A stretch of DNA of 64,000 bases. It comes from Pseudomonadota bacterium. Lineage in GTDB: Bacteria > Pseudomonadota > Gammaproteobacteria > Burkholderiales > Burkholderiaceae_F. Under the pieces are notes generated by a model, which did not search any database, was not told the origin of the DNA, and saw only the letters and a program-made list of their open reading frames with translations. This document shows positions 36,378 to 40,883 of this stretch, in pieces. The translations under genes were made by a program, and so were the position numbers. Each line of letters begins with the position of its first letter. Within the stretch, counting starts at the first letter, position 1. Location: the NCBI GenBank assembly GCA_029778535.1, contig JAKOQB010000178.1, positions 1-64,000 on the forward strand. Direction: 5' to 3'.

Positions 36378-38066
36378 CTAGTACACGGGGGTCTCGCGAT
36401 ACGTTCCCCACAAGCCCTTCAGTTTCTCGACGATGTCGCCCATCGTCGCGCCGGCTTTCACCAGCTCGATCGTGATCGGCATGATGTTCTGCTGCTCGTC
36501 CTTCGCGACCTCGACGAGCTGGTCGAGCAGTCGCGCGAGCCTGGCGTTGTCGCGCTCGCGCCGCACGCGCTGCGTGCGCGCGATCTGGCGCTCGGCGGTG
36601 GTGGGGTCGTACGGGTGGATCTCGATGTCGTGCTGCTCTTCCGGCCCGACGAAGCGGTTGACGCCGATCACCGGCTTCTCGCCCGACTGCTTGCGCAGCG
36701 CGGTCTCGTAGGCGAAATCCGCGATGTGCTTCTGGAACCAGCCCTGTTCGATCAGCTTGATCGTGCCGCCGCGTTCCTCGACTTCCCGCAGGATCGCGAA
36801 GATGCGCTGCTCGTACTCGGTGGTCAGCGCTTCGACAAAGTAGCTGCCGCCGAGCGGATCGATCACCTGCGTGACGTTGGTCTCCTCGGCGATGATCTGC
36901 TGCGTGCGCAGCGCCATCTTCATCGCGTCCTCGGTCGGGATCGCGAACGCCTCGTCGTAGCCGTTGGTGTGCAGCGACTGCGCGCCGCCGAGCACGGCGG
37001 ACAAGGCCTGCATCGCGGTGCGGACGATGTTGATCTTGTACTGCGGCTTGGTCAGCGTCGCCGCCGCCGTCTGACAGTGGAAGCGCAGCCGCATCGAATC
37101 CGGGTTCGCAGCAGCAAAGCGCTCGCGCATGATCTTCGCGTAGCAGCGGCGCAGCGCGCGGAACTTGGCGACCTCCTCGAAGAAGTCGCCCTGCGACACG
37201 AAGAAGAACGCCAGCCTGGGGGCGAACTCGTCGACGTTCATGCCGGTCTTCAGCACTTCCTCGACGTAGACGATCAGGTTCGCCAGCGTGAACGCGGCTT
37301 CCTGCAGCGGCGACGACCCGGCCTCGGAAATGTGGTAGCCGGAGATGTTGATCGGGTTGTAGCGCTTCAGGTTCCGAGCCGAGTAGGCAATGATGTCGCG
37401 GCAGATGCGCACCGACGGCGCGATGGGATAGATGTACTCCTTCTGCGCCATGTACTCCTTCAGGATGTCGGCCTGCACCGTGCCCGACAGTTTGTTCAGG
37501 TCGCAGCCGCGCTTCTCGGCGAGCGCGACGTACATCGCGAGCAGGATCCACGCGGTCGGGTTGATCGTCAGCGACACCGATATCTTCTCCAGATCGATGC
37601 CGTCGAGCAGCGCCTCCATGTCGGCCAGCGTGTCGATCGCCACGCCTTCGCGGCCGACCTCGCCGTCGCTCATCGGGTGGTCGGAGTCGTAGCCCATCAG
37701 GGTGGGCATGTCGAAGTCGGTCGAGATCCCCGTCTGGCCCTGCGCGATCAGGTACTTGAAGCGCTTGTTGGTGTCCTCGCCGGTGCCGAAGCCCGCGATC
37801 TGCCGCATTGTCCACGTGCGGCTGCGGTACATCGTCGGATACGGCCCGCGCGTGAACGGGTACTGGCCGGGCAGCCCGATGTCTTCCAGCGGCGTGGCCG
37901 CGGCGTCGGCCGCCGTGTACACACGCTTGACCGGGATGTCGCCGGTGGTGAAGAACTGTTCGCGCTTCTCCGCCTGCTTCTTCAGGAACGCGGCAACTTC
38001 CTCGTTCTCCCAGCGGCGCTCCTGCGCGCGCAGCCTGGCGACCGCGGATTCATCGAGCAAGTTCAT
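36378..38066 (-). CDS. hcmA: Cobalamin-dependent acyl-CoA mutase large subunit, 2-hydroxyisobutyryl-CoA mutase-like
   Basis: 562 aa stand-alone MCM-family catalytic subunit; 'YPTMYRSRTWTMRQI(90)AGFGTGEDTNKRFKYLIAQGQTGISTD(117)FDMPTLMGYDSDHP', i.e. Ile90/Asp117 rather than the MCM Tyr in 'RQYAGF'. Confidence 0.85.
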   Translation of the reverse strand: MNLLDESAVARLRAQERRWENEEVAAFLKKQAEKREQFFTTGDIPVKRVYTAADAAATPLEDIGLPGQYPFTRGPYPTMYRSRTWTMRQIAGFGTGEDTNKRFKYLIAQGQTGISTDFDMPTLMGYDSDHPMSDGEVGREGVAIDTLADMEALLDGIDLEKISVSLTINPTAWILLAMYVALAEKRGCDLNKLSGTVQADILKEYMAQKEYIYPIAPSVRICRDIIAYSARNLKRYNPINISGYHISEAGSSPLQEAAFTLANLIVYVEEVLKTGMNVDEFAPRLAFFFVSQGDFFEEVAKFRALRRCYAKIMRERFAAANPDSMRLRFHCQTAAATLTKPQYKINIVRTAMQALSAVLGGAQSLHTNGYDEAFAIPTEDAMKMALRTQQIIAEETNVTQVIDPLGGSYFVEALTTEYEQRIFAILREVEERGGTIKLIEQGWFQKHIADFAYETALRKQSGEKPVIGVNRFVGPEEQHDIEIHPYDPTTAERQIARTQRVRRERDNARLARLLDQLVEVAKDEQQNIMPITIELVKAGATMGDIVEKLKGLWGTYRETPVY

Positions 38067-39036
38067 TCGAGTACTCCTTGCGTATCGTGTCGTTGATCAG
38101 TTCGCGCGCGAGCGAGTAGGGGTCGGACGCGCGCTGCGCGAGCCGCTGCGCGAGCGGTGCGGAAATCGTCGCGGCGGCGCTGCGAAAGCCTTCGAGCAGC
38201 ACCGTCTCCGCGGTCTTGGCCAGCCGGAACGCAGCGACGCGGCCGCGCCGCTGCGCGCCGAGCGCGGTCGACTTCAACACTTCGCGGTGCGCGTCGATGC
38301 GCGCGATCAGCGCGTCGATGCCCTGGCCGGTGTAGGAGCTGACTGCGACCACCGGGATCTGCCACAGCGGCTTGTCCCTGGTCAGCGCGCCGAGCGCCAG
38401 CATGTGCTTCAGATCCGTCAGCGTGCGGTTGGCGTCGTCCCGATCGCACTTGGACACGACATGGATGTCGGCGATCTCGAGGATGCCGGCCTTGATCGCC
38501 TGGATCTCGTCGCCCAGTCCCGGCGCCGACACCACGATAGTGCTGTCGGACGCGTGCGCGATCTCGATTTCGTCCTGGCCGACGCCCACGGTCTCGATGA
38601 CGATCGTCGAATAGCCGGCGACATCGAGGATGTCGACCGTATCGAGCGCGGCGCGGGCCATGCCGCCGGTGGCGCCGCGCGTGGCCATGCTGCGGATGAA
38701 GACGCCGGGATCGTTGGCGAGTTCCGTCATCCGGATGCGGTCGCCGAGGATCGCGCCGCCGGAGTAGGGGCTCGACGGATCGACCGCGACGATGCCGACC
38801 TTCTCGCCGCGCGCGCGCAGCGCCTGCGCCATCTTTGCCACCAGCGTCGACTTGCCGCTGCCGGGCACTCCTGTCAGCCCGATCACGTGCGCGCGCCCGG
38901 CGCGGCGATAGATCTCGGCCAGCGCCGCGCGCGCCTCTTCGGCGCCGGCTTCGGCGCGCGACATCAGCCGGCCGGCGGCGCGCACGTCGCCGTCGGCGAT
39001 GCGCGCGACCAGTTCGGAGGAGGGGACGTAGCTCAT
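38050..39036 (-). CDS. meaB: MeaB/ArgK-type G3E GTPase, mutase chaperone
   Basis: 'HVIGLTGVPGSGKSTLVAKMAQALRARGEKVGIVAVDPSSPYSGGAILGDRIRM'. Confidence 0.95.
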   Translation of the reverse strand: MSYVPSSELVARIADGDVRAAGRLMSRAEAGAEEARAALAEIYRRAGRAHVIGLTGVPGSGKSTLVAKMAQALRARGEKVGIVAVDPSSPYSGGAILGDRIRMTELANDPGVFIRSMATRGATGGMARAALDTVDILDVAGYSTIVIETVGVGQDEIEIAHASDSTIVVSAPGLGDEIQAIKAGILEIADIHVVSKCDRDDANRTLTDLKHMLALGALTRDKPLWQIPVVAVSSYTGQGIDALIARIDAHREVLKSTALGAQRRGRVAAFRLAKTAETVLLEGFRSAAATISAPLAQRLAQRASDPYSLARELINDTIRKEYSNELAR

Positions 39037-40466: not shown

Positions 40467-40475
40467 CGTCGTTCC

Positions 40476-40883
40476 TTATCTTGGTCCGCGTTGCTCGACC
40501 AGCCGGTGCAGCGTGTCGACGATCACCTGCGGCGGCGTGTCCTGCAGCAGCACCTCGCGCACGCCCATCTGCTTGATCGCGGCCACGTCGTCGTCCGGCA
40601 TCACGCCGCCGGCAACGACGATGATGTCGCTGGCGCCGCGCTCGTCGAGCAGGCGGAAGATCTTCGGGAACACCGTCATCTGCACGCCCGACAGCAGGCT
40701 CACGCCGAGGACATCGACGTCCTCCTGGATCGCGGTGTTGACGACCTCCTCCGGCGTGCGGTGCAGGCCGGAGTAGATGACGTCCATGCCGGCGTCGCGC
40801 AGCGTGCGCGCGACGACCTTGACGCCGCGGTCGTGGCCGTCGAGGCCGACCTTGGCGAGGAGTACTCGTATGGGGGTGCTCAT
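40476..40883 (-). CDS. hcmB: Cobalamin-binding small subunit of acyl-CoA mutase
   Basis: 135 aa; B12 motif 'KVGLDGHDRGVKVVARTLRDAGMDVIYSGLHRTPEEVV...VSLLSGVQMTVFPKI...VVAGGVMPDDD'. Confidence 0.9.
   Translation of the reverse strand: MSTPIRVLLAKVGLDGHDRGVKVVARTLRDAGMDVIYSGLHRTPEEVVNTAIQEDVDVLGVSLLSGVQMTVFPKIFRLLDERGASDIIVVAGGVMPDDDVAAIKQMGVREVLLQDTPPQVIVDTLHRLVEQRGPR

What the first reader, a model, noticed from the sequence alone, without database searches (positions are those of the whole stretch)
36378..40883. 2-Hydroxyisobutyryl-CoA mutase-type cluster rather than ordinary methylmalonyl-CoA mutase
Seen directly: on the minus strand, hcmB-like B12 subunit (135 aa), PaaK-like CoA ligase, MeaB-type GTPase and a 562-aa stand-alone catalytic subunit lie in tight order. 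The catalytic subunit reads ...TWTMRQ-I90-AGFG... and ...GQTGIST-D117-FDMPT.... Established: MCM has Tyr in the equivalent 'RQYAGF'; the Ile/Asp pair at exactly positions 90 and 117 is what I recall for HcmA of Aquincola tertiaricarbonis, the enzyme for tert-butyl/MTBE-derived 2-hydroxyisobutyrate. Inference: this locus activates and isomerises a branched 2-hydroxy acid (2-hydroxyisobutyryl-CoA to 3-hydroxybutyryl-CoA), and the adjacent ligase supplies the CoA ester.
Basis: partly seen in the sequence, partly recalled or inferred. Interest (0 to 1): 0.82.

Follow-up and report, generated by a model that had tools for sequence, protein, structure and literature searches.

The report
2-Hydroxyisobutyryl-CoA mutase operon with lyase
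This bacterium carries a close copy of the known vitamin B12 enzyme system that breaks down 2-hydroxyisobutyrate (a product of fuel additives and of unknown natural sources), and the same operon holds a second enzyme predicted to split the same intermediate into acetone and formyl-CoA, a pairing that recurs in many bacteria but has hardly been discussed.

Summary
36378-40883 (-) encodes HcmA (562 aa, I90/D117), MeaH, HCL and HcmB, orthologous to the characterised 2-hydroxyisobutyryl-CoA (2-HIB-CoA) mutase system of Aquincola tertiaricarbonis. HcmA is 85% identical to PDB 4r3u and 42-46% to methylmalonyl-CoA mutases. In a tree, 4r3u falls inside the same supported clade as the window.

[quoted passage not shown] The lyase is within about 10 kb of hcmA in 27 of 80 related loci, in several layouts, and near hcmA on the plasmid of the MTBE degrader Methylibium petroleiphilum PM1. 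The literature held treats lyase-ligase and mutase-ligase clusters as alternatives; one 2026 paper mentions a lyase near a mutase as a possible minor route.

Best reading: HCL makes 2-HIB-CoA; mutase and lyase share it. The core is a new member of a known kind; the lyase-mutase pairing and the split-site gamma-CA-like partner are the interesting extras. All activities are inferred from sequence; none was assayed.

The parts
40476..40883 (-). hcmB, B12-binding small subunit of 2-hydroxyisobutyryl-CoA mutase (135 aa)
   Evidence: PDB 4r3u_C 239 bits, next best 130 bits; TIGR00640
39033..40466 (-). hcl, 2-hydroxyisobutyrate-CoA ligase (477 aa)
   Evidence: PDB 6hdw 930 bits against 218 bits for true PaaK; TIGR02155 PaaK model 257 bits, far under its 646 cut-off
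38050..39036 (-). meaH/meaB-type G-protein chaperone of the mutase (328 aa)
   Evidence: TIGR00750 305 bits over cut-off 241; PF03308
36378..38066 (-). hcmA, catalytic subunit of 2-hydroxyisobutyryl-CoA mutase, I90/D117 (562 aa)
   Evidence: PDB 4r3u_A 1079 bits, MCM 447 bits; 85.2% identity over 559 positions; tree
36307..36375 (-). 24-bp-stem hairpin between hcmA and the lyase start codon; a copy of a dispersed palindromic repeat
   Evidence: -61.5 kcal/mol, z -8.0; three copies in the window, more on the same contig, absent from this gap in seven relatives
34572..36302 (-). hacl, AcHACL-type ThDP-dependent 2-hydroxyacyl-CoA lyase (576 aa)
   Evidence: NF058623 804 bits over cut-off 600; PDB 7pt1 586 bits; 53.6% identity; H44, E65, T88, L127, Q128, I492, E493 and C-terminal lid kept
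33528..34562 (-). two-domain gamma-carbonic-anhydrase-like protein with the metal-binding histidines split between the domains (344 aa)
   Evidence: alignment A1; AlphaFold2 pLDDT 95, pTM 0.92; halves match gamma-CA structures; conserved neighbour in 41 of 80 loci
40977..41705 (+). divergent GntR/FCD-family regulator, probable regulator of the operon
   Evidence: PF07729, PF00392; conserved neighbour in 47 of 80 loci

Best explanation
A catabolic operon for 2-hydroxyisobutyrate (and possibly close 2-hydroxy-2-methyl acids). HCL activates the acid to its CoA ester. HcmAB, kept active by MeaH and adenosylcobalamin, isomerises 2-hydroxyisobutyryl-CoA to (S)-3-hydroxybutyryl-CoA for conversion to acetyl-CoA. 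The downstream AcHACL-type lyase acts on the same ester, or its C5 homologue, and splits it reversibly into a ketone (acetone) and formyl-CoA. The operon therefore sets up a two-exit branch point. The gamma-CA-like protein is an accessory of unknown chemistry. Shown here: orthology, active-site residues, gene order and conserved linkage. Inferred: all activities, the direction of the lyase, and the substrate.
For: HcmA, HcmB and HCL each match the A. tertiaricarbonis structures far above any other enzyme. I90/D117 and tree placement hold. The lyase passes the curated NF058623 cut-off and keeps every residue reported to contact or protonate the acyl part in AcHACL (PMC8760513). It is linked to hcmA in 27 of 80 loci in several layouts and on PM1's plasmid, where adenosyltransferases and a 3-hydroxybutyryl-CoA dehydrogenase complete the route. 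Among 101 relatives, 6 of 7 with hcmA have the lyase against 5 of 94 without (p = 2e-6). Within the window's clade the lyase and HcmA trees contain the same lineages. The genome encodes cob(I)alamin adenosyltransferase, 3-hydroxybutyryl-CoA dehydrogenase-like proteins and a formate dehydrogenase on the same contig.
Against: No activity was measured. A repeat hairpin sits just upstream of the lyase start codon in the window and could lower its translation. No acetone carboxylase gamma subunit was found, so the fate of acetone is open. Mycolicibacterium ELW1, which has both enzymes, needs cobalt to grow on 2-HIBA, so the lyase alone does not support growth there (PMC13188929). Of 20 hcmA genomes chosen because the fetched locus lacks the lyase, 16 lack it altogether, so it is not needed for the mutase route.
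Confidence: 0.75

Rival explanations
1. Acetone entry: the lyase runs in the condensing direction, joining acetone and formyl-CoA to 2-hydroxyisobutyryl-CoA, which the mutase then linearises. This would be the aerobic, ligase-bearing counterpart of the acetone route proposed for Desulfococcus biacutus.
For: AcHACL is reported to be reversible (PMC8760513). Lyase plus mutase is the proposed acetone route of sulfate reducers (PMC7888143, PMC8084838). No acetone carboxylase gamma subunit was found in this genome.
Against: hcl is kept in nearly every lyase-bearing locus, whereas D. biacutus lacks it (PMC7176365). No formyl-CoA-supplying gene is linked, and no own-genome protein passes the formyl-CoA transferase cut-off. 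The D. biacutus lyase is of another type.
Confidence: 0.15
2. Only the mutase route matters; the lyase is a minor or vestigial side activity carried along with the cluster.
For: PMC13188929 calls the ELW1 lyase a possible minor route and reports cobalt-dependent growth. A hairpin repeat lies at the lyase start. Many hcm clusters lack the lyase.
Against: Fully conserved catalytic residues in 26 of 26 mutase-linked lyases aligned; repeated association in different layouts and from different lyase branches.
Confidence: 0.2
3. The mutase acts on another CoA ester (methylmalonyl-, isobutyryl- or pivalyl-CoA) and the resemblance is only of family.
For: The generic family models for methylmalonyl-CoA mutase match.
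Against: 85% identity to AtHcmA, I90/D117, matched ligase and small subunit, and the tree. The genome has separate MCM-like and IcmF-like genes.
Confidence: 0.03

Closest known systems
HcmAB-MeaH-HCL cluster of Aquincola tertiaricarbonis L108 and Methylibium petroleiphilum PM1
   Same: Same gene order gntR / hcmB-hcl-meaH-hcmA, 85% identical HcmA, I90/D117. PM1 also has the lyase and the gamma-CA-like gene downstream.
   Different: The window lacks the linked adenosyltransferases, 3-hydroxybutyryl-CoA dehydrogenase and Rieske oxygenase/reductase pair of PM1. A repeat hairpin separates hcmA from the lyase.
Lyase-HCL cluster of Actinomycetospora chiangmaiensis (AcHACL)
   Same: Lyase of the same NCBIfam equivalog, same acyl-contacting residues and lid, together with HCL.
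   Different: That strain has no mutase; here lyase and mutase share one operon. Lyase identity is 53.6%, and three CoA-contact positions differ (Q255G, S274G, K564S).
Acetone cluster of Desulfococcus biacutus and Desulfotomaculum arcticum
   Same: ThDP enzyme plus B12 mutase acting around 2-hydroxyisobutyryl-CoA; D. arcticum's acetone-induced set also contains a carbonic-anhydrase/acetyltransferase protein (PMC8084838).
   Different: Distant lyase (22% to AcHACL by PMC7176365), RcmAB-like mutase and no HCL; anaerobic.
Mycolicibacterium sp. ELW1 ibc cluster 2
   Same: Mutase, ligase, G-protein and a TPP-dependent lyase in one region (PMC13188929).
   Different: Actinobacterial plasmid with many cobalamin genes; the lyase lies at the far end of a 37-kb cluster.

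Membership tests
2-hydroxyisobutyryl-CoA mutase (HcmAB) | Ile90 and Asp117 in the catalytic subunit | tested here: met
   I and D at columns 90 and 117; MCM Y/A, IcmF F/A
2-hydroxyisobutyryl-CoA mutase (HcmAB) | Groups with characterised HcmA, outside MCM and ICM | tested here: met
   17-row clade with 4r3u, SH-aLRT 96; outgroup branches are long, so only the grouping, not the root, is relied on
2-hydroxyisobutyryl-CoA mutase (HcmAB) | Separate small B12-binding subunit and MeaH in the operon with hcl | tested here: met
2-hydroxyisobutyryl-CoA mutase (HcmAB) | B12-dependent isomerisation of 2-hydroxyisobutyryl-CoA | not testable with these tools
   Needs an enzyme assay
2-HIBA-CoA ligase (HCL) | Closer to HCL than to PaaK | tested here: met
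   930 bits against 218; under the PaaK cut-off
AcHACL-type 2-hydroxyacyl-CoA lyase | Passes the curated equivalog cut-off | tested here: met
   NF058623 804 bits, cut-off 600
AcHACL-type 2-hydroxyacyl-CoA lyase | Catalytic E493, size-limiting L127 and I492, Q128, H44, T88, E65 and C-terminal lid | tested here: met
AcHACL-type 2-hydroxyacyl-CoA lyase | CoA contacts Q255, R273, S274, R362, R417, D561, K564 | tested here: inconclusive
   R273, R362, R417, D561 kept; Q255G, S274G, K564S differ, as in most of its proteobacterial branch
[quoted passage not shown]
   Needs an enzyme assay
Gamma-carbonic anhydrase | Left-handed beta-helix fold | tested here: met
   gamma-CA structures matched with target TM about 0.85
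Gamma-carbonic anhydrase | All three zinc-binding histidines in one domain | tested here: not met
   domain 1 keeps two (H70, H93), domain 2 keeps only the third (H250); invariant in 32 of 32
Methylmalonyl-CoA mutase | Tyr/Ala at the 90/117 equivalents; curated equivalog cut-off | tested here: not met
   (577 bits against cut-off 876)

The most novel reading that the evidence does not exclude
The operon is a 2-hydroxyisobutyryl-CoA hub in which mutase and lyase both work in vivo, linking 2-hydroxyisobutyrate, acetone plus a C1 unit, and 3-hydroxybutyryl-CoA. Its two-domain gamma-CA-like protein is a previously unrecognised accessory metalloenzyme of B12-dependent acyl-CoA mutases, with a metal site assembled from histidines divided between two fused domains. 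It occurs near hcmA in 41 of 80 loci and in one genome directly after IcmF.
Probability: 0.25. Interest if true: 0.65.

Novelty: new member of a known kind. Interest (0 to 1): 0.45.

Why it matters
The mutase cluster itself is known, but the field describes mutase and lyase routes for 2-hydroxyisobutyrate largely as alternatives held by different bacteria. Here, and in the long-studied MTBE degrader PM1, both sit in one gene row. Carbon balances for fuel-oxygenate degraders may therefore overlook an acetone and formyl-CoA branch, and natural operons exist that pair a reversible one-carbon ligase/lyase with a mutase, a combination of interest for one-carbon assimilation and methacrylate precursors. 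The strict linkage of an uncharacterised split-site gamma-CA-like protein gives a concrete new gene to test. In this genome no MdpJ-like tert-butyl alcohol hydroxylase was found, in line with a natural rather than fuel-derived source of the acid.

Tried and rejected
Rejected: ordinary methylmalonyl-, isobutyryl- or PaaK-type annotation. Rejected: acetolactate synthase or oxalyl-CoA decarboxylase for 34572-36302 (both far under their cut-offs). Rejected: a true single-domain gamma carbonic anhydrase for 33528-34562. The MdpJ search gave nothing and has no positive control. The acetone carboxylase search rang in only one of 101 genomes, so absence is only suggestive. One family scan failed because I gave coordinates out of frame; repeated with the correct ORF. 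Promoter and terminator scans found nothing useful.

Full report
WHAT IS THERE. The gene series continues: after a 75-nt gap comes a 576-aa ThDP enzyme (34572-36302), then after 9 nt a 344-aa two-domain beta-helix protein (33528-34562), whose end overlaps an Hsp33-like gene. A GntR-type regulator is divergent upstream (40977-41705).

IDENTITY OF THE CORE. HcmA scores 1079 bits against PDB 4r3u_A (2-hydroxyisobutyryl-CoA mutase) and 447 bits against methylmalonyl-CoA mutase. Identity is 85.2% over 559 positions to 4r3u and 41.8% to human MCM. HcmB scores 239 bits to 4r3u_C. The ligase scores 930 bits to the solved 2-hydroxyisobutyryl-CoA synthetase 6hdw and 218 bits to phenylacetate-CoA ligase. 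I90 and D117 hold in all true HcmA rows checked. The other mutases of the same genome read Y/A, Y/A, L/I and F/A. In a maximum-likelihood tree (89 rows) the window and 4r3u lie in one 17-row clade with SH-aLRT support 96. Outgroup branches are long, so I rely on the grouping and not on the root.

THE LYASE. The gene after hcmA passes the curated NCBIfam model NF058623 (2-hydroxyacyl-CoA lyase; 804 bits, cut-off 600) and matches PDB 7pt1 (AcHACL) at 586 bits, against 236 bits for the next family. AcHACL cleaves 2-hydroxyisobutyryl-CoA reversibly to acetone and formyl-CoA (PMC8760513). The residues named in that paper for the acyl part, the cofactor and proton transfer (H44, E65, T88, L127, Q128, I492, E493) are kept in the window and in all 26 mutase-linked lyases aligned, and the C-terminal lid in all that are not cut by a contig end. 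Three CoA-contact positions differ in the window (Q255G, S274G, K564S), as in most of its branch.

HOW GENERAL IS THE PAIRING. Of 80 fetched hcmA loci, 27 have the lyase within the fetched flanks (up to 10 kb; many contigs are shorter, so this is a lower bound). Layouts differ: directly or soon after hcmA, between hcmB and hcl (L027), divergent upstream (L031, L033, L040), after the gamma-CA gene (L043, L050), upstream (L057). The lyase tree puts mutase-linked lyases in at least two separated branches and shows unlinked lyases nested among them, so the association arose or was broken more than once, while in the window's own clade mutase and lyase come from the same set of lineages. Among 101 relatives 6 of 7 hcmA genomes carry the lyase, and 5 of 94 others (Fisher p = 2e-6; genomes are related, so this p is optimistic). 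Of 20 hcmA genomes whose fetched locus lacks it, 4 have it elsewhere. Plasmid RPME01 of Methylibium petroleiphilum PM1 has gntR, hcmB, hcl, meaB, hcmA, a small ORF, an adenosyltransferase, the lyase, the gamma-CA-like gene, a second adenosyltransferase and 3-hydroxybutyryl-CoA dehydrogenase in a row, with a Rieske oxygenase and an oxidoreductase nearby.

WHAT THE LITERATURE SAYS. PMC7176365 describes the lyase-HCL cluster as a mutase-independent route and names lyase and mutase together only for Desulfococcus biacutus, with a distant lyase, RcmAB-like mutase and no HCL. PMC13188929 (2026) mentions a TPP-dependent lyase in the ELW1 mutase cluster as a possible minor route. A gene table for PM1 and strain T29 (PMC4517660) lists ligase, mutase and dehydrogenase, not the lyase. 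I found no paper in the held library that discusses the proteobacterial lyase-mutase operon; subscription papers could not be read, so priority is not claimed.

MECHANISM. Most likely HCL forms 2-hydroxyisobutyryl-CoA; the mutase isomerises it to (S)-3-hydroxybutyryl-CoA (inferred from orthology to AtHcmA); the lyase offers a B12-independent exit to acetone and formyl-CoA, or handles a C5 homologue, which AcHACL uses at similar rate (PMC7176365). Retention of hcl argues that the entry is a free acid. The reverse, acetone entry, is possible and is kept as a rival. Downstream capacity exists: a cob(I)alamin adenosyltransferase, 3-hydroxybutyryl-CoA dehydrogenase-like proteins at 41% identity, a formate dehydrogenase over its cut-off on the same contig. 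Not found: MdpJ-like hydroxylase, acetone carboxylase gamma subunit, a formyl-CoA transferase over cut-off.

THE GAMMA-CA-LIKE PARTNER. It is found at 41 of 80 loci, with or without the lyase. In 32 aligned sequences H70 and H93 of the first domain and H250 of the second are invariant. By alignment to gamma carbonic anhydrases (and general knowledge of the family's three ligands, two from one subunit and one from its neighbour) these correspond to two ligands kept in domain 1 and the third kept only in domain 2, so a complete site would have to be assembled from both domains. The AlphaFold2 model is confident (pLDDT 95, pTM 0.92) and resembles gamma-CA over one domain at a time. A full-length two-domain form occurs in 6 of 7 hcmA relatives and 1 of 94 others (p = 4e-8); the exception lies directly after a fused isobutyryl-CoA mutase (IcmF, 1903 bits). 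Function is open: thioesterase like PaaY, CO2 chemistry, or mutase maintenance.

CAUTIONS. Nothing here measures activity. The source genome is a 240-contig assembly with estimated contamination of 7.6%, but the operon lies inside a 155-kb contig and related genomes show the same synteny including flanking genes. The hairpin at 36307-36375 is a dispersed repeat, yet it may affect lyase expression.

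Noticed in passing
33528-34562 (-): Two-domain gamma-carbonic-anhydrase-like protein with metal-ligand histidines split between its domains (H70, H93 in the first; H250 in the second), invariant in 32 homologues.
   Followed up: partly
L122:5553-10025: In one relative without hcmA (G078) the same two-domain gamma-CA-like gene directly follows IcmF, suggesting a wider link with B12 acyl-CoA mutases.
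   Followed up: partly
18902-18965, 20743-20806, 36310-36372: Dispersed palindromic repeat (19-bp arms GCCCCGGCGCAGGCCGGGG, about 63 bp in all), 3 copies in the window and more elsewhere on the contig; REP-like.
   Followed up: partly
L004 (G000:C20:71532-73079): A further mutase of the same genome has Leu/Ile at the 90/117 positions (RQLIGLGT / SLIPCNSV), unlike the MCM, IcmF and HCM sequences aligned; substrate not assigned.
   Followed up: no
L072, L080, L085: HcmAB loci with an IcmF-like gene upstream of hcmB; L080 and L085 show no hcl, and in L085 an indolepyruvate ferredoxin oxidoreductase-like gene precedes IcmF.
   Followed up: no
L095, L096, L117, L118, L119, L120: AcHACL-type lyases in loci without hcmA, beside a different AMP-binding ligase (usually with a GntR regulator); in Azoarcus sp. 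KH32C near a PQQ alcohol dehydrogenase, an aldehyde dehydrogenase and a formate dehydrogenase subunit.
   Followed up: partly
32614-33531 (-): An Hsp33-like gene overlaps the end of the gamma-CA-like gene by 4 nt.
   Followed up: no
41705-42511 (+): DUF455 protein gene next to the GntR gene, kept in close relatives.
   Followed up: no
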